From Chytriomyces cf. hyalinus JEL632 (lineage: Eukaryota > Chytridiomycota > Chytridiomycetes > Chytridiales > Chytriomycetaceae): a stretch of 64,000 bases of DNA. The position numbers and the translations under genes were made by a program. The stretch lies in NCBI GenBank assembly GCA_025435555.1, contig JAIWWG010000047.1:186001-250000 (forward strand), written 5' to 3'. This document shows, one piece after another, positions 35,663 to 53,496 of the stretch. Under the pieces are notes generated by a model that saw nothing but the letters and a program-made list of their open reading frames with translations, had not been told where the DNA came from and made no database searches. How positions within the stretch are numbered: the first letter of the stretch is position 1; each line of letters begins with the position of its first letter.

Positions 35663-36913
35663 TTACATGTTTGACACACTGTTTGCTTCGGTTTCGCTCC
35701 GAATCTGCTGCCACAAAAACGTTTGTATTCGCTGCGCGTTCTCTGGTATTCTTAAATCATTCCCTTGCAACGAAATCATGTCCAGCTCCTCCAACTGCCC
35801 CAATTCGACAGGAATTTCGCCCTGCATCTGATTCTCATGAAGCAGCAAGTACCGCAAGTGTTCAAGATTGCCAAATGTGCATGGAATAGATCCCTCAAGC
35901 AGGTTTCGACTGAAATCCAGATAATACGCGTTCCGCAAATTTCCAACTTGTGGGGGCAGATTGCCATTAAGCTCGTTGTTTCCAAGATCGAGCAAAGTTA
36001 ATTGATCTAGTGACCCCATTTGTTGCGGTATGCTGTCCGTCAAGCGATTGTCGTTGAGTTTGAGCGAGGTCAGTTGAGATAAATCTGAAATGCCCCGTGG
36101 AATGGGTCCATCCAGCTGGTTGAAACTGAGGTTCAAAACCTTCAAATGAATCAGCTGCAAAAGCTCCGCTGGAAATGGTCCGGACAACCGGTTACACGCC
36201 AAACTCAGCGTATGCAGGTGAATCAGGTTCCCCAGGCTGGACACTACTCCGCCTTGAAGATTCATATACGTCAAGATGAGGCACTTTAGCTGCGTTAAAC
36301 CTCCGACTGCATGCGGCAACTTGCGAAACGAAACACTTGCAGAATGTCGAAACCGGGTACCCATTCGCTTTAACCGAGGGTCCTCCCATTTTATTTTCGT
36401 CAACTTGCTGAGGACCTTTTCTGCATAGTAGGACTGGTATGTTGCTGGCCACATGAACCAAAGCCTGTCGAAATCCGTCATGGCTGTATTTCTAACCGTG
36501 ACTTCCGTTGCAATGTCAGAGTCTGAATCGGATGAGTTGCTGCGTGCGCATTTGAAGGAAAGGGTCTGATCCACGGTGAAAGACAGATTTAGGGCCGCAA
36601 ATCCACGTGTGGACAGAGCCGAGTTTGTTTGACGACAAAGACGGCGGAACCTCATAACGTGGGACGGATGGATGTACGCAAATATGAACTGAATGATCTC
36701 CTGTGGAAGCAGTGTTTGGAACGGGGAAGTTGGCGTGCGGATCACAAAGTGGATGGCCTTCGAGGTTTGATCAGGTTTTAAAGCGGGTTCTTGCACAACC
36801 GCAGCAGTCACCCTCCTGCTGTAGATGGGAATGAAGGCTGCGACCAGGGTGATTGCAATGAGCGTGAAGACTACACTCAGCGACGTCGGTTCACGCCATT
36901 GCCAGTTGTTCAT
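35663..36913 (-). CDS. Membrane-anchored F-box-like / plant-type leucine-rich repeat protein
   Basis: Intronless, 416 residues. An N-terminal TM helix (SLSVVFTLIAITLVAAFIPI, ~11-30) is followed by an F-box-like segment (LLPQEIIQFIFAYIHPSHVM, ~68-87, then RFRRLCRQTN). From about residue 200 there are around eight leucine-rich repeats of the plant-specific type: LxxLxLxxNxLxGxIPxxLGxL, for example LTLLDLGNNELNGNLPPQVG and LRYLLLHENQMQGEIPVELG. LRRs of this type bind proteins or peptides. The combination of a membrane anchor with an F-box-like helix suggests membrane-proximal recognition, but the F-box match is weak. It starts 30 bp from the divergent SEC6 gene and ends 82 bp before ORC1. Confidence 0.85.
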   Translation of the reverse strand: MNNWQWREPTSLSVVFTLIAITLVAAFIPIYSRRVTAAVVQEPALKPDQTSKAIHFVIRTPTSPFQTLLPQEIIQFIFAYIHPSHVMRFRRLCRQTNSALSTRGFAALNLSFTVDQTLSFKCARSNSSDSDSDIATEVTVRNTAMTDFDRLWFMWPATYQSYYAEKVLSKLTKIKWEDPRLKRMGTRFRHSASVSFRKLPHAVGGLTQLKCLILTYMNLQGGVVSSLGNLIHLHTLSLACNRLSGPFPAELLQLIHLKVLNLSFNQLDGPIPRGISDLSQLTSLKLNDNRLTDSIPQQMGSLDQLTLLDLGNNELNGNLPPQVGNLRNAYYLDFSRNLLEGSIPCTFGNLEHLRYLLLHENQMQGEIPVELGQLEELDMISLQGNDLRIPENAQRIQTFLWQQIRSETEANSVSNM

Positions 36914-45011: not shown

Positions 45012-45533
45012 TCAGCTGTCACTTCCAACTGACCAGTCCTTATCCAGCACGACCGTATAGAAACCGACAACTTGACCTGCAATGTCATCGTCTCCTTTCC
45101 TCGCTATCCAAATATGACCCACATAAGTTTCCTGCGTGTAACCCTCTCCCGGTAAAAGAGTCGCATATATGACCTCTGCTCCTTCAAAAGAACTCCAATA
45201 GATGGTGATTGTGTGGTCAAGGCTGTTTCTAAACTGCACTGATGCCGCTTCTGTTGGAACCCCGGGAGTTGGCGGAAACTTGTTGCATGGGGCAAAGATG
45301 GTAAATGGGGCGCGGCACATGGGGCAATGGCATTGGTTGTTGAGCAGGCACATTTGATAGCATCCAAAGTGCAGGATGTTTCCGCAGCATCCGAGGTTAA
45401 GTAGAGGAACGCCACCGCGCGGGAGCATTAGATCGAAGCATATGCTGCAAATGTCGGACTCGATCGCTGCAGCCATTCTTGCCTGTTCTTTAGAAATGAT
45501 GTTCGTTTGTGTTTTGACAAAGAAAATGTTCAT
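45012..45533 (-). CDS. RING finger - VHL beta-domain fusion protein
   Basis: Intronless, 173 residues. Residues 29-73 form a RING-type zinc finger: C29, C32, C49/C50, H55, C58, C62, C70 and C73 (CSIC...CCGNILHFGC...CPMC). Residues ~98-160 match the beta domain of von Hippel-Lindau protein: VQFRNS, IYWSSFEGAEVIYATLLPGE, YVGHIWIARK. The human VHL hydroxyproline-pocket residues Tyr98, Ser111, His115 and Trp117 align with Tyr123, Thr136, His140 and Trp142. The VHL alpha domain, which binds Elongin C, is absent; the protein stops 13 residues after the beta domain. It therefore looks like a self-contained E3 ligase, with RING recruiting E2 and the beta domain recognising substrate. An internal ATG at 45476 is an alternative start. 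Activity is inference. Confidence 0.85.
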   Translation of the reverse strand: MNIFFVKTQTNIISKEQARMAAAIESDICSICFDLMLPRGGVPLLNLGCCGNILHFGCYQMCLLNNQCHCPMCRAPFTIFAPCNKFPPTPGVPTEAASVQFRNSLDHTITIYWSSFEGAEVIYATLLPGEGYTQETYVGHIWIARKGDDDIAGQVVGFYTVVLDKDWSVGSDS

Positions 45534-45607: not shown

Positions 45608-48293
45608 TTATTTCCGACCAGTGGAAGGAGCTTTCAGCCTGCTACCTCCAGATGGAGCCCCAACACTTGTGCTTTTGCGCCATCTGTCCAATCCACTGGG
45701 GGCCACGTTTCCGGACAAGTCCTCGGACGACGCAGGTTTCCTCCATTTATCCAAGCTATTCACAATATTTGAGCTCCCACCGCCCCCATTATCCACAGTC
45801 TCGGCACTTTTGCGCCATCTATCTAAATTCACTGATGGTCCCATACTTGCTGATCCCCAATTCGGGCCATTTTCTCCCTCAGAAGACTGAGTTGGCTTCC
45901 TCCATTTATCCAACCCACCATTCTCCGAACCTTTCGGTTGATGTATACTCGCACGTCGATACCGATCCAGTCCACTGCTGCCAGCACTCAATGGAGAATC
46001 CGCACTTGCTCGCGATCCGGATTCTGGGCTGGTAACATTTGGGGCTCCAGTAGTGGAAGAACGATATCGGTCCAAGCCACCAGTTTTCACAGTCGTGACA
46101 GCTGAGTCTGAATGGTATCGCGAGGACATGACGCTGGGAGGGACCGCTCCACCTCCAAGTCTTGATGAAGCGCCACTTCCACCAGCAGGTGATACAGCTG
46201 CCTTACTTGCAGCGGATAGAGTTGCAGGTCGGCGTGATGAAGCCGTTGCACTCATAGAGCCTGGCTTAACACTGGAAGAGGTTGCGCGAGAAGCGGGGCT
46301 TTTCACAGGGGTGGCTGAAACACCTTCTCCAAATTCCCCATCATTGAATTTTTTGAAAGAGCGTGGCTTGTACCCGTTGGTCTGGCTCGTGTTTGCAGTG
46401 GGTGTCGAACTTAACCGAGGTGACGCGTAGGAACCGGAATTCATTGAGAGCCGGTTGGTGGACGGGCGAACTGACGAGACGCGCGATGCAACAGCGCTGC
46501 TTGTACTGGCTGCAAAATTTATCTTGGTGGGAGTTTTAGTTGGAGTGGCAGTGGCAGAGGGAGCGGCTGATGCAATTCGAGAACGGGGGCCGGGAATTGA
46601 ACTGCCTGGTTTCATAAGCCCGGTTGCTACAGCTTTGACAGTGGCACTCTGCCTCAATTTGGATGCAGGCAGCTTGGATCCACTGGAAGGCGCAGGCAGT
46701 CTCGAAATTCTGGAACCAGAACCGGATGAGCTGGCGATGCTCAAGTTGGAGTTTGTGCTAACGCGTTTGCTGGCATCTGGAAACTCCTTCTTCCCTTCTG
46801 TCAAATGAAGCAGGGTTTGAGTTGATAGGAGTGAAAATGACATCCCGCCGCCACCACTACCGGGTCCCAAAACCATCGATGGAGTGATTGTATCAAGCGA
46901 AGCGAGACTGCCGGAACGGTTGTTGCTTGAAACCTCAGAGAGGGTGTCCATACCTGAATATTTCCCATTTCCAGCAGCATCCAGAATCCGTGTGTTGTAT
47001 GCAGCCAGCATCCATAACTCATTGGAGTCGATGGCGTAATCATTGACGCGGGTTGAGGCTGTTGAAGTTGTTGGGCTCATGAGCTCTGGTGGCTGGGCGC
47101 CGACAGCTGCCTGCAGCTCGACGGCATTAAACATACATTCCAATTCTTCGGAGCGGGAAGAGTCGAATTTTACAAGATAGCTGTTGATGATGTTTGTACA
47201 GCCATGGAGGGCAAGGAATTGAAGGGGGGCGGACACAGCTTTTCCACACAGCGTGTTAATGAGCAGCTGAATGATGGATGTTGAGAGCCGTACGCATCCT
47301 GACAATGACAGATTTCGCACACTTTGGGATTGATGGCAGTTTTGAATGATTGAATACAGCGACAAGTCTGTGATCATTGAAACCAGCGACAAGTCCAAGG
47401 TTTCCAAATTGCTGCAAGATTGAGAAATGCGTATAATGCAGTCGTCTGTTAGAGACGAGCATCCCTCCAGTCTGATTGTTGCTAGCTGCGGACATGCAAG
47501 AGCAATAAAGCGGACATGGACGTCTGAAGCACCGGAATTTTTCAGGTTCAAGGTTTTCAATGGACGAGTGAATGTTTCGAGAGGGCTGAAGGATACTGGA
47601 GCCTGCGAAGGGGCAGCGCCTTCCATGACCAGTTTGGTTATATTGGGTAAAGATTCAACCAGGGTGACAGCTGAAGCCACTGTGACTAGCGAGTACGATA
47701 AATCAACCGTGGACAATTTGCGACATGAACTGCAGAGAGTTTTGATGAGCAGATCGGTTATAGGGCATTCTCTGAGTGAGAGATGGGTGAGTCTGTGAGC
47801 ATTGTCCGCCAGCGACTGAGCGAGAATGTTCGAGGCCATCGGAGCAGCGTTGAAAGAGAATGAAGTGAGCATGGGGCACAGCTGGATGAGCGTATCCACG
47901 TCCCCCATTTCGAGGTCCGCTCCCACGTGCCCGTTTCCACCCTTTTCCGAATCAAACTCCCCGTCAAATCGAATGGCACGCACAAGCATTGCATACGGCA
48001 ACATTGCGTTGCCATCGAGCAGAGTGGCCGCAATCTTCTGATTCGTGGGATCCAGAATACGGTACAACAAGCCCGCGCCTGCCTGAAGCCACCGCCGGTT
48101 CACCACCAGCAAAGACGCAATCATATGCGTGGGGATATGCTTTAAGATCTGCTGGATGGCTCGCACGGGAAGATCCCGTGAGAAGTCTGAGAGCAAGCGT
48201 TGATGATAAATGAGGTCAATGACAACTCATCAGCGGCAATGCCAGGCACTGAAACGCACCATTTACAATCATGGATCCCTGTTTCGGCACCAT
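45608..48293 (-). CDS. F-box / leucine-rich repeat protein with Ser-rich repetitive tail
   Basis: Two exons in phase: 48293-48260 and 48186-45608, giving ~870 residues. The long frame itself begins at a TTG. Splicing a 73-nt intron (GTGCGT..TCAG) adds MVPKQGSMIVN and a proper ATG. The N-terminus has an F-box-like helix set (LPVRAIQQILKHIP, LVVNRRWLQAG), then ~10 Cys-containing LRRs as in Grr1/SKP2 proteins (LATIRLEGCSSLTDDC, LETLDLSLVSMITD). About 500 residues of Ser/Ala/Pro/Thr-rich disordered sequence follow. The last ~140 residues carry six spaced copies of LD[RK][YW]R. The likely role is the substrate adaptor of an SCF ubiquitin ligase. It ends 74 bp before the start of the RING-VHL gene on the same strand. 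Confidence 0.88.
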
Positions 48294-48508: not shown

Positions 48509-51500
48509 TCAAGAAAATATGTGTCCGGTTGGGACAGCCCCGTCCTCATTCGTCAGATCAGATTCATCAACGTCGACGGTTTCTTCTTCATCTTTGCTGC
48601 TACTGCCGATAGGAGCATCTCGTTCATCCAAATCATCTTGTTCGTCCAGTTCTTCTTCCCTGTGCTCACGCTCCACCAACTCATCCACTTCGTTTTCGGA
48701 ATCGGGGGTTCCAGTTTCAAAGGTTTCATGGCTTTCCCTCGCTTCATTTTGTTTTTTAGCATCCTCAGGATCCACAATGGCATCCGGTTGTATCTCGTGC
48801 TCAGAACTTGAATGCTGAGATTGAATTTCCATTGTTTCCTCTGTCATCTTTGGTGCTCCTGACGCAGTCACAGTTTCAGTTTCTACTGTCTGAGAATAGG
48901 CTACAGTTTCTACATCAACTTCCGGCTCGTAATCATCGTTAGTTGAGTCAGAGTCTGACAATTCTGAGTTTAGCTCTGCCGTGACATCTGTCGGGGTCGA
49001 TTCGTCTGCAGCAGATTCAGCAACAATCAGTTTGGCTGTTTCTTGATATTCCACCTCAGGTTCATCTGCCACTGGCATACCGGTGGGTTGTTGCGAAAGA
49101 ACGGTCTCAGCTGAAGTTGCAGGTTGAGTTGCCTCCAAAGTCGCGGTTGTCATGTGCGATGTCGTGGTCGACGCCTCCTGGGTTTCGGTTTCAAATGATT
49201 CACTGACTGTAACAGTGGGAGCCGTTGCTACAGGCGCAACAATGATTGGAGGAGGCGGAGGAGGCGGAGGAGGTCCACCCCTCACTGGAGGAGCAGCTGC
49301 AGTTGGTGATGGTTTTTGAGCAAATGTTGCGCTGGAGCTCAGGTCTGTAGCAGTTGCAATTGAAGAGTCATCAGTGTCCGATGGGACTTCAAGGACTGGC
49401 GAATTCGCAACAATCGATTCAACCATCGGTAATTCAATCGCTTCGGTAGAAAACTGGTTCTTTGCATCAACTTGGGTTCGTGTAGCGTCTATGGGATCAT
49501 CATTCAATTTTGAGGAGGCCACTGTGAGCCGTTTGTAAGCAATCAGAAAAAAAATGTAAACATTCAAGAAAGCATTACCAGCAGTGTGGGTGGAGAAGGA
49601 TTCATCATAGACAGCACCTGAATCAATCGTAGCGCTAGTCGCTTCAGTATCAGCCCGAATGTCAGCACTTCGCTCATCCGCCCCCTCCTTCGTTTCGCCA
49701 TTCGTGGAAGAATCCTGTCCCTCCAGCGTGACGTCCATTTCTTCGCTTGCTTCAAAAGAATCTTCATCATCTATCCGCACATTTTCATTCCCCTGGACTT
49801 CCTCATTCTGCAATCTCTCCAGCTCAAGTTTCCGCCTCAAGATCGCTTCCTCCTCGGCCCGTCGATCCCTGATAGCCCTTTCCTCCAAACCTTTCACCAC
49901 ATCTAACCTTTCCTGTAACCTCCTCTCAACTTGCGCCATCCGCTCCTCTTCCCACTTTTTCATTTCCTCCAGTTTCTCATTCTCAATCGCAGCCGCTTTT
50001 TCCCGCGCAATACTTTCCTGCTCCGCAACATACTTTGCAACACGCTCCCGTTCAGCTCGCTCCCAATTATTCTTCACTTTCCGATCCACATTGTCAATCG
50101 CTTTGAGCGTGGACTTGTGCACACCTGCAAGCGTGTCAGACGTCAACGGCACGATTTCAGACACAAACTTTTCGGCAGCCGTATGCCAAGCTGTCGAAAC
50201 GGATGAATAGATGGGAACTGCAAATTGGCACATGAGGCCGTCGTTGTTGGACGGGCTTGCGCAGTGCACGTTCAAGGTTGCGTACGAGATGAAACTTGTG
50301 AGGAGGAAAAATAAGATCATAAAGACAGTGTTGAAGATGGTTTCCTTTTTTGAGCTTTCCAGCTGGGATAGGATTTTCTGTTTTTGTTTTTAAAAAAAAA
50401 AAAAATGTAAGCGAAATGATGAAGCCAGAGAAGGCAGTTGCGACAAAAATTTCTTACAGCAAGTTGCATGGCAGAAACAGGACCGCCCATGGTATCAACA
50501 GGAGTCCACGGTTCAGGGTACATATCCCCACGCCCGCGATGCCCAGAGCCCGTCTCATGCACCCTCATGAGCCCCTTCATTGCAGTAGGACTCGACATGA
50601 CTGATTTAATAAAAGCAGGTGAAGAAGACGCGTCGAAAGGATTTTGCGCCTTGAGCATTTCCAACCGCTTATGAGATTCTAATTCCGCAGCCATCATTTC
50701 CGTCTGAGTCTTGTACCTCTCCATCTGCAGTTCTAGATCTCGCTCGCGTTGGGAAACTCCATAGACAGCGTTGGAAAGCTGTTGGCTTTGGGATATGGGG
50801 CTGAAAGCTGAGCCTGCGTATCCAGTGTATTGGTTCGGCATAGGGAGTCTAAGTTGCCCAAGTTGGGCCTCTACATTGAATAAGAGCTGTTCCATTTCAC
50901 TGGCGAGAAGAGCGACTTCAGAGCCACTGTTGTAGGTAGGAAGCTGTTCTGGTTCATGGTGGTATGCAGAGTCTAGCAGGGCTGCGCAAGCAAGAGAAAG
51001 CTCTGCAAACACCACTGGAAACCAAAAAAAAAAAAAAAAAAAAAGTGCATCACATCATTCAATAAAAGGTCATAAAGGGGATAAACTAAAAAAATACATC
51101 AAAAAACGGCCATTACTTGCAATATCAGCGCGAAAAGCGGCTCGTTCCACAATCTGCCCACCAGCATCTGGTGAAAAGTCCCCGCGATGAGCAAAGTCGT
51201 CCAGTGCCGTCCGCGCATTGTCTAATTCTATTCGTCCAGACTCTAAAGCGTCTGCCACAGCCGCAGGTTTATCAGGAGACTCGCTCATAAACGACATGCG
51301 CCGAGAGTGTCCCATGGGTGGCATGTTTGGAGAAATAGGGCGGTATGAGTCAGGAAACATGCGGTTCTCGAATAATGAATTATGATGCGATCGGATGGTT
51401 GCTCGCGCAACTTCTAGTTCCGCCTCCACAGTGAGCAATTTCGCCTTCATGACAAAGAAGAGTTCCTCTTTTTCTTGATCACTGTAAACAACGCGAAGGT

Positions 51501-53496
51501 AGCCAGCGTTGTTTGCAGCGGCATCGGAAAAAGAGCCATCATCCAACGCAACGCCGTCTTCCATAGATGCACGCAATGCTGCTATCCGAGATTTGGCAAT
51601 GCTCACTTTTTCAGTCATCAAAGCCACAAGCGCCTCAGTCTTCCGTGAGGCTGCCAGTTCATTCTTAAGCTCCAAAACCCGTTCTTGATCTTTCGAAATC
51701 GTTTCCCTCGCCTCATCTACATCTTGTTGCAATTCCGTCAGCTGGACAGCCAGAGAATCCCGTTCACCCGTCAAGGCCTCGCATTGACCGCCCCACACAG
51801 CTTCAACCTCACTGATGCGTTGCGCAGCAATTTCCTCGGGTATACCGGCAATCACAGTCTGTTTGTTGGCGTCAACACCAGAAACAACAGCATTCGCGCC
51901 CAACGAGCTGGTAACTTCCACGTCGAGTCTCAAAAAACCGTTTGAATCCACGCAGCCAGGAACTTGGTCAAGGCCCAATAGACTCGGCCAACCCGTGCTC
52001 AAGTTTGTAGCGTTGAAAATAAAACCTCCTGTCAGAGTTTTTACCGACACGTGTGACGGGCTGTGTGTGTATCCGTACTCTCCTTGTGGACTCGCGATTT
52101 TCAGGGTGAAGCTGCTGATGCTGCGAGTCCATGATAAAGTTTCAAATTCTGTTTGAGTTAGAACGGGTTGCAAGAATCCAGCAAGCTGTCCTTCTTCGTA
52201 ATTGGCAGTGAGGTTAATGTTCCAAGGGCTGTCGTCGGGTCCAAAAGTTGGAGACAAGAGACTTTCAAATCCGTTTGAAAGATGAGTTTCAAATTGCGGG
52301 ATGGCCCAACTGAACGTCTGTGTAGTCCATGGAACGGACGTCATTGATTCTACACTTGCCGATAAAATGAGCGAACCGGTTTGAGGGTCGACAGCTGAGG
52401 GCAGATATTCATCCAAATGCATAAGAGTTGTGAATCCCCAGCCAGGCACGCTTGCAGAGAAGCCGTTGAATTCATGTTCAACGGAAGTGTCCTGGATCAA
52501 CACATCTTCGGGAACTTCCTCGTCCGCATGGGAAGGAAGCATGGTGTAAGAGAAACTTTCTTCCGGCTCGGACGAGTAAGGATTCACATCAACGGGCTTG
52601 TGCACACGAAATGTGAATCGTCTCACGGGCCGAAACCAATCCTCCTTTGCAGCCATTTCATCCACAGTTTTCAACGGCCTCAAGAAAGCGCTTAAATAAA
52701 TTTGATCCGAGTTGTTGTTGCTCGCTGCTCCGCGCGGGTATATCACCATCTGCCACGGATGATTGGCCGACCCAAAAGGTGGGGACACAATTTTTTCGTC
52801 CGTGATGGAGTTGAAGTTTTCAATGGTCCATTTGTACGAGGCAACCAAGTTTGTGGAGATGAACGTTTCTTGGTGCGCGAGGGACAAGTCTTGGCCGCTG
52901 CCGAAACCAACCACCACGTTTTGAGTCGGTGATTCTGCATGTGTCCCATTTGGATGAGTGTAAATTGGTGTTTCGCTCGCATGTGCTGCAACGCCGTTGG
53001 GGATGACATCGGATATTGGGTGAATTGAAATGTTTGAACCAAACATGGGGTTTCCGGATGTTGCAGAGAGGGCCAGACCCGGTACTCTGGGAGAAGCACC
53101 GCTCTTGGAACTGCTTGAACGCCTTTGATCGTGTGTTGTTGGGTATCCCAGGCTGGAGTTATTTGGAATTGGGGCAGATTCCAAGGAAACCCATGTCTTT
53201 TGCTCTTCAATTGAGAACCAGCAAAAGAGTTTAGAAATTGAAGGGAGAATTAAGATGCATGGGGCAAAAGATGTGCGTTATTCACCAATTGCAGTCGGAG
53301 GAGGAGGGGCAAACGAAACACTTTGTTTCACATCCGCGTTGTTCTGCTCGTACATTGACAGTTCATCTCGGTAAGAGTTGTTGTAGTAGTCGTCATCGCC
53401 AAAGTCCATTGCAAATCCGGCTCCTCCTTCGGGATCGATGAATGTTTCTTGTTTGCCATCTTGCGATGGAATATCGGTGCTGATCTGCGCGGACAT
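48509..53496 (-). CDS. Large double-MATH-domain membrane protein
   Basis: Five exons in phase: 53496-53286, 53204-51117, 51014-50458, 50377-49579 and 49521-48509, giving ~1,555 residues. Two MATH/TRAF-like domains are seen: ASYKWTIENFNSITDEKIVS with FGSANHPWQMVIYP, and QTFSWAIPQFETH with FGPDDSPWNINL. A long coiled coil, a TM helix (FMILFFLLTSFISYATL), a charged coiled coil (EEERMAQVERRLQERLD) and an acidic Glu/Asp/Thr-rich tail with a Pro run complete it. Fungal proteins called 'MATH and UCH domain protein' have a similar layout, but I see no UCH catalytic Cys/His here. The intron 51015-51116 has a 21-nt poly-T tract beside its 3' splice site. MATH domains often recognise substrates for ubiquitin ligases; the role here is unknown. 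Confidence 0.85.

What the first reader, a model, noticed from the sequence alone, without database searches (positions are those of the whole stretch)
45012..45533. RING finger fused to a VHL beta domain that keeps the hydroxyproline pocket
In animals VHL is only the substrate receptor: its beta domain binds hydroxylated HIF and its alpha domain binds Elongin C, which links to Cul2 and the RING protein Rbx1. Here one 173-residue protein has a RING finger (C29-C73) directly followed by a VHL beta domain, and no alpha domain. The human pocket residues Tyr98, Ser111, His115 and Trp117 align with Tyr123, Thr136, His140 and Trp142 (only Ser to Thr). This suggests a one-piece ligase for a hydroxyprolyl or similar substrate, independent of Elongin and cullin. 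It may be a lineage-specific fusion or an ancestral arrangement.
Basis: partly seen in the sequence, partly recalled or inferred. Interest (0 to 1): 0.88.

Follow-up and report, generated by a model that had tools for sequence, protein, structure and literature searches.

The report
RING finger joined to VHL domain
A fungus-like genome encodes one small protein that joins a ubiquitin-ligase RING finger to the binding half of the tumour suppressor VHL; it looks like a one-piece ligase, but the pocket said to mark it as a hydroxyproline reader is shared by many bacterial proteins, so what it binds is still open.

Summary
Minus strand 45533-45012 holds one 173-aa frame with a RING-like finger (C29-C73) and, 21 residues on, a VHL beta domain (PF01847, 31.8 bits, cut-off 21); no alpha domain was seen. 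The RING is an unusual 'CC' type, like RBBP6, with eight candidate zinc ligands, but scores below Pfam's cut-off.

The 'kept hydroxyproline pocket' (Tyr, Ser/Thr, His, Trp) is the family consensus: 40 of 57 profile-found bacterial domains carry all four, and no RING family appeared in 54 bacterial ORFs scanned (21 of the 54 are cut by locus ends). By identity the domain is no closer to human VHL than to many bacterial ones, so an 'ancestral arrangement' is not shown. The genome does encode possible writers of cytosolic hydroxyproline (a PhyA/PHD-like hydroxylase fused to a GlcNAc transferase; an Ofd1 homologue). Best reading: a single-chain RING ligase with a VHL-type recognition domain, ligand unknown.

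The parts
45012..45533 (-). Whole ORF, 173 aa, ATG at 45533 to TGA at 45012; an inner Met20 is an alternative start
   Evidence: upstream in-frame stop
45315..45449 (-). RING-like finger, C29 to C73: C-x2-C-x16-CC-x4-H-x2-C-x11-C-x2-C-R
   Evidence: zf-RING_2 18 and 20.2 bits, below the cut-off of 27.3; ligand spacing; match to an own-genome RING-like frame
45252..45314 (-). Linker, residues 74-94
   Evidence: translation
45087..45251 (-). VHL beta domain, Pfam match residues 95-149; the domain probably runs on to about residue 160 (inferred)
   Evidence: PF01847 31.8 bits over a cut-off of 21; human VHL E=0.00044; bacterial-row profile 58.0 bits
45108..45197 (-). Pocket positions W113, Y123, T136, H140, W142 (human W88, Y98, S111, H115, W117)
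   Evidence: human pocket roles from passages of PMC9528729

Best explanation
A single-chain RING-type ubiquitin ligase. The N-terminal RING (CC type) would recruit a charged E2, and the C-terminal VHL beta domain would hold the substrate (or an adaptor) directly, in place of the Elongin C-Cul2-Rbx1 bridge of animal VHL. Shown: the ORF, the VHL domain by profile, eight candidate zinc ligands in RING order, no alpha domain seen. Inferred: zinc binding, E2 binding (I31, P71 and Arg74 after the last Cys are usual E2-facing features, from general knowledge), ligase activity, the VHL domain as substrate site. Open: the ligand, which may or may not contain hydroxyproline.
For: One uninterrupted frame with both domains 21 residues apart. 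VHL profile well over the cut-off and far from shuffles. RING ligand spacing close to RBBP6, whose C-X2-C-X11-C-C-X-[NS]-X2-C-X2-C-X12-C-X2-C pattern a passage of PMC1360078 calls C4C4 or C3NC4; that passage also says that C4C4-type CNOT4 has ligase activity. An own-genome RING-like relative with a normal CGH. Eukaryotic surroundings: chitin synthase, oxysterol-binding, F-box/LRR and MATH genes in the window, so not bacterial contamination.
Against: The RING is below Pfam's cut-off; the canonical His is Asn52 and the usual helix Trp position is Cys62. No structure could be predicted. No second species with the fusion was seen, and none could be looked for among eukaryotes; phages and viral contigs gave none. 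No expression evidence; coding statistics weak. In bacteria the same domain sits in proteins with no RING match.
Confidence: 0.6

Rival explanations
1. Special case of the best reading (its odds lie inside the 0.6): the VHL pocket reads a hydroxylated proline, so ubiquitination depends on a prolyl hydroxylase and on oxygen. Candidate writers are the PhyA/PHD-like hydroxylase fused to a GlcNAc transferase (Skp1-type) and the Ofd1 homologue.
For: The core pocket residues are kept, Ser to Thr keeping the hydroxyl, and so are F76=F101, F91=F116, L101=L126 and Y112=Y137 (alignment); the roles of these residues are given in passages of PMC9528729. A frame on the same contig has the second half of a 2OG-oxygenase domain, matching PHD2 at E=1.1e-8, followed by PF11397 GlcNAc transferase at 9.2e-36; an Ofd1 homologue has PF10637; five of six Skp1-like loci read TPEEEEQ at the place that PhyA modifies in Dictyostelium (place recalled), the sixth TPEQEEQ. 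[quoted passage not shown]
Against: The same pocket is the family consensus in bacteria (40 of 57 profile-found domains). Residues that flank the peptide differ (P86 to I111, P99 to A124, R107 to Y132, I109 to Q134). In the Skp1 pathway the hydroxyproline is expected to carry a sugar. The search for the HIF family found nothing, but its control rang nowhere, so that is no evidence either way.
Confidence: 0.2
2. The RING half is a zinc-binding, dimerisation or E2-blocking module without ligase activity, and the protein is an adaptor or inhibitor.
For: Non-canonical RING under the Pfam cut-off; Asn at the usual fourth ligand; no Trp in the E2 helix position (sequence).
Against: CC-type RING CNOT4 is reported to have ligase activity (PMC1360078 passage); Arg74 at the usual linchpin place (recalled feature).
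Confidence: 0.18
3. A private fusion under little constraint, or not expressed.
For: Seen in one genome only, with no other eukaryote searchable; weak coding statistics; the neighbouring gene on the same strand ends only 74 bases before this ATG, leaving little room for a promoter.
Against: Full frame with no stop; all eight RING ligand candidates and the core VHL residues intact.
Confidence: 0.12
4. It still works with a cullin complex, through some other contact to Elongin C, and the RING is an extra.
For: The genome has an Elongin C homologue (two exons, 57% and 71% identity) and 39 cullin matches, exon by exon.
Against: No alpha domain or BC-box was seen (by eye).
Confidence: 0.04

Closest known systems
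Animal pVHL (substrate receptor of CRL2-VHL)
   Same: VHL beta domain with W88, Y98, S/T111, H115, W117 in place
   Different: No alpha domain seen; own RING; 34.7% identity over 49 aligned positions, exceeded by 20 of 57 profile-found bacterial domains
Bacterial VHL-beta proteins (Planctomycetota, Myxococcota, Cyanobacteriota, Actinomycetota and others)
   Same: Same domain, same pocket consensus; nearest single row Actinokineospora L061, 48% over 50 positions
   Different: No RING family in 54 ORFs scanned; 19 match DPPIV_N and 17 Peptidase_S9
RBBP6/CNOT4-type CC RING fingers
   Same: CC pair, Asn two residues after it, spacing of the other ligands
   Different: His55 where RBBP6 has Cys; longer first loop (16 against 11); the match to human RBBP6 itself is weak (E=0.53)
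One-chain RING ligases with a beta-sandwich substrate domain (SIAH, TRIM-SPRY; recalled, not tested)
   Same: Architecture: RING plus beta-rich recognition domain
   Different: Unrelated recognition domain

Membership tests
VHL beta domain family (PF01847) | Profile score over the curated cut-off | tested here: met
   31.8 bits against 21; 58.0 bits with a profile of bacterial rows
VHL beta domain family (PF01847) | Residues nearly invariant in the bacterial survey: N78, W88, S/T111, H115, W117 | tested here: met
   N103, W113, T136, H140, W142
VHL beta domain family (PF01847) | Beta-sandwich fold | not testable with these tools
   structure prediction not accepted
pVHL, receptor of an Elongin-cullin ligase | Alpha domain with BC-box that binds Elongin C | tested here: not met
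   no such Pfam family at E<=1; the ORF ends soon after the beta domain; downstream frames read by eye only, so a spliced extra exon is not strictly excluded
pVHL, receptor of an Elongin-cullin ligase | Closest kinship to animal VHL | tested here: inconclusive
   human 49th of 108 rows by identity, below 20 of 57 profile-found domains; tree of 52 columns unresolved, one animal sequence only
Hydroxyproline reader | Core pocket residues | tested here: met
   W113, Y123, T136, H140, W142, but not specific: 40 of 57 bacterial domains have Y, S/T, H, W
Hydroxyproline reader | Binds Hyp over Pro | not testable with these tools
   needs a binding assay
RING finger ubiquitin ligase | Eight zinc ligands in RING order and spacing | tested here: met
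   C29 C32 C49 C50 H55 C58 C70 C73, CC-type spacing; which residues bind zinc is inferred
RING finger ubiquitin ligase | Score over the Pfam cut-off for a RING model | tested here: not met
   18 and 20.2 bits against 27.3
RING finger ubiquitin ligase | E2-dependent ubiquitin transfer | not testable with these tools
   needs an in vitro assay

The most novel reading that the evidence does not exclude
A flagellated fungus has a one-polypeptide, oxygen-gated ubiquitin ligase: a RING joined to a VHL-type pocket that reads hydroxyproline made by a PHD-like enzyme (PhyA-Gnt1 type or Ofd1). Bolder still: the VHL pocket is an ancient prolyl or hydroxyprolyl-binding module, used in bacteria beside prolyl-oligopeptidase domains, and wired to ubiquitin at least twice, once by an alpha domain in animals and once by a RING here.
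Probability: 0.15. Interest if true: 0.88.

Novelty: new variant of a known kind. Interest (0 to 1): 0.5.

Why it matters
If the fusion is active, it would be a one-piece form of what animals build from several proteins, and a simple system in which to ask what VHL domains bound before HIF existed. The wider point is that VHL beta domains, pocket included, are spread through bacteria and in Planctomycetota often sit beside prolyl-peptidase domains. That makes the original ligand of the pocket a testable question, and it warns against reading the pocket residues alone as proof of oxygen sensing.

Tried and rejected
Rejected: 'pocket kept, therefore hydroxyproline ligase' (family consensus in bacteria). 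Rejected: bacterial contamination (eukaryotic genes around it). Rejected: read-on from the upstream LRR gene (it ends in a stop 74 bases before the ATG). Not shown: orthology to animal VHL. No viral or phage relative found (window queries; bacterial VHL queries; the scans of viral contigs rest on short peptide patterns). Papers: no RING-VHL fusion, VHL in chytrids or prokaryotic origin of VHL came up (0 papers; 25 of 1,415 listed; 9 papers; 10 of 147 listed, none of those ten holding 'VHL domain'; 0; 0); the library holds open-licence PMC papers only, so this does not show that none is in print. The HIF family search in the own genome says nothing, because its control rang nowhere. The crude signal-peptide count (73 of 118 bacterial ORFs, 110 of them distinct) has no negative control and is only a hint.

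Biases to know: the genome contigs set (50 loci, 49 unique domains) was fetched with a pattern that fixes T, H and W or F and was drawn partly from the window, so only the 57 profile-found domains carry the pocket claim. They come from 56 loci: of the 28 matches, the centre genome's own (L074) was left out and L091 gave no alignment row; of the 58 matches, only the best 30 that were given as loci were used. Rows that repeat a domain were dropped (61 rows to 57). The alignment came from an iterated profile whose seed held the window and a human stretch. The tree has 52 columns for 109 rows, including pattern-found ones, and one animal sequence. The ten ORFs were my choice, not a random draw.

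Full report
What is there. The minus strand 45533-45012 encodes 173 residues in one frame. Residues 29-73 form a RING-like finger, residues 95-149 match the Pfam VHL beta domain at 31.8 bits (cut-off 21), and phmmer finds human VHL at E=0.00044. A profile of 57 bacterial VHL rows gives the window protein 58.0 bits; the best of 998 shuffles reaches 8.7. So the VHL domain is not chance. Ten codons separate the ATG from an in-frame stop, and the gene upstream on the same strand ends 74 bases before the ATG. Coding statistics favour this frame over the five others but are weak.

The RING. Pfam's zf-RING_2 reaches only 18 bits (20.2 for the fragment) against a cut-off of 27.3. The pattern is C-x2-C-x16-CC-x4-H-x2-C-x11-C-x2-C-R. 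Where normal RINGs have CGH, this has CCGN. RBBP6 has the same CCGN (typed from recall, confirmed against the PDB), and a passage of PMC1360078 describes that type as C4C4 or C3NC4 and notes that C4C4-type CNOT4 has ligase activity. A RING-like frame elsewhere in the genome is 40% identical over residues 16-64 and has the normal CGH; by eye it continues after an intron into a vWA-like stretch. It too is below the Pfam cut-off, with 24.2 bits for the part before the intron. I take the window RING as a likely but unproven ligase RING.

The pocket. Passages of PMC9528729 list Trp88, Tyr98, His110, Ser111, His115 and Trp117 as the human hydroxyproline site, His110 acting through its backbone. The window has Trp113, Tyr123, Glu135, Thr136, His140 and Trp142. 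To ask whether that is special, I collected bacterial VHL domains: 23 of 282 genomes in the phylum of a Labilithrix MAG and 42 of 294 in the phylum of a Mariniblastus MAG have a match over the Pfam cut-off. Of 54 ORFs scanned with Pfam, none lists a RING family; 19 match DPPIV_N and 17 Peptidase_S9 (21 of the 54 touch a locus end, so further domains may be missed). Ten Planctomycetota ORFs that I chose all have DPPIV_N, eight of them also Peptidase_S9. So the pocket is the family signature. Its conservation may mean a shared old ligand or a structural core; either way it does not single out this protein. Of the residues around the hydroxyproline site in human VHL, F76, F91, L101 and Y112 are kept, while P86, P99, R107 and I109 become I111, A124, Y132 and Q134 (alignment); N67 and R69 lie before the aligned part.

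Kinship. By identity human VHL ranks 49th of 108 rows against the window (34.7% over 49 positions; bacterial median 33.3%; best 48%, Actinokineospora). Part of those rows were fetched with a pattern drawn partly from the window; of the 57 profile-found domains alone, 20 exceed human VHL, the best at 41%. In a 52-column tree the window sits by the Actinokineospora row (98/63) and human VHL by four Planctomycetota domains (96/75), neither strongly supported; all four of those neighbours lie in ORFs with DPPIV_N. That bacteria hold VHL domains is in print (PMC9002001, abstract in a listing and passages), though that paper reads its protein as a tumour suppressor, which I do not follow.

The rest of the genome. 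The genome (37.8 Mb in 242 contigs) has one VHL match, an Elongin C homologue, 39 cullin matches exon by exon, six Skp1-type matches, 14 chitin-synthase N-terminal matches and radial spoke 3. These searches read six frames without introns, so counts are lower bounds. It has four 2OG-oxygenase matches: an Ofd1 homologue (PF10637); a frame with the second half of an oxygenase domain, resembling PHD2 at E=1.1e-8, joined to a GlcNAc transferase, PF11397; and two others not identified further. [quoted passage not shown] So cytosolic hydroxyproline is likely in this organism (inference), but nothing links it to the RING-VHL protein.

Mechanism. Most likely a one-piece RING ligase with a VHL-type recognition domain (0.6, ligand open). 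An oxygen-gated hydroxyproline ligase is a special case at about 0.2. Passages of PMC9618697 and PMC5800844 differ on how far VHL reaches outside or at the base of animals; domain-only hits such as this one may be one reason (inference).

Limits.

Noticed in passing
L004:349-1704 (G000:C185, about 121.0-122.4 kb, about 64 kb before the window starts): Second half of a PHD2/PhyA-like 2OG-oxygenase domain in one frame with a GlcNAc transferase (PF11397), like the Skp1-modifying PhyA-Gnt1 arrangement; five of six Skp1-type loci read TPEEEEQ.
   Followed up: partly
L107, L108, L110, L112, L113, L116, L118, L119, L120, L127 (Planctomycetota): VHL beta domains sit in ORFs with DPPIV_N (10 of 10 chosen) and Peptidase_S9 (8 of 10) (19 and 17 of 54). 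A VHL pocket beside a prolyl-peptidase hints at an old proline-type ligand; human VHL falls nearest to four of these in a weakly supported tree.
   Followed up: partly
window 45608-48124, minus: 838-aa protein with a weak LRR match whose C-terminal part repeats a short motif LD[RK][WY]R six times; function unknown.
   Followed up: no
L018:1480-1659, minus (G000:C208:112776-112919): RING-like frame cut by an intron, with a vWA-like stretch downstream by eye; nearest RING relative of the window protein in this genome.
   Followed up: partly
G000:C182 about 40-43 kb and G000:C215 about 1-4 kb: Skp1-type copies lie in clusters on two contigs: two matches on C182 and three on C215.
   Followed up: no
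window 51070-53046, minus, and 35663-36913, minus: A MATH-domain gene and an F-box/LRR gene, two more possible ubiquitin-pathway adaptors in the same window.
   Followed up: no
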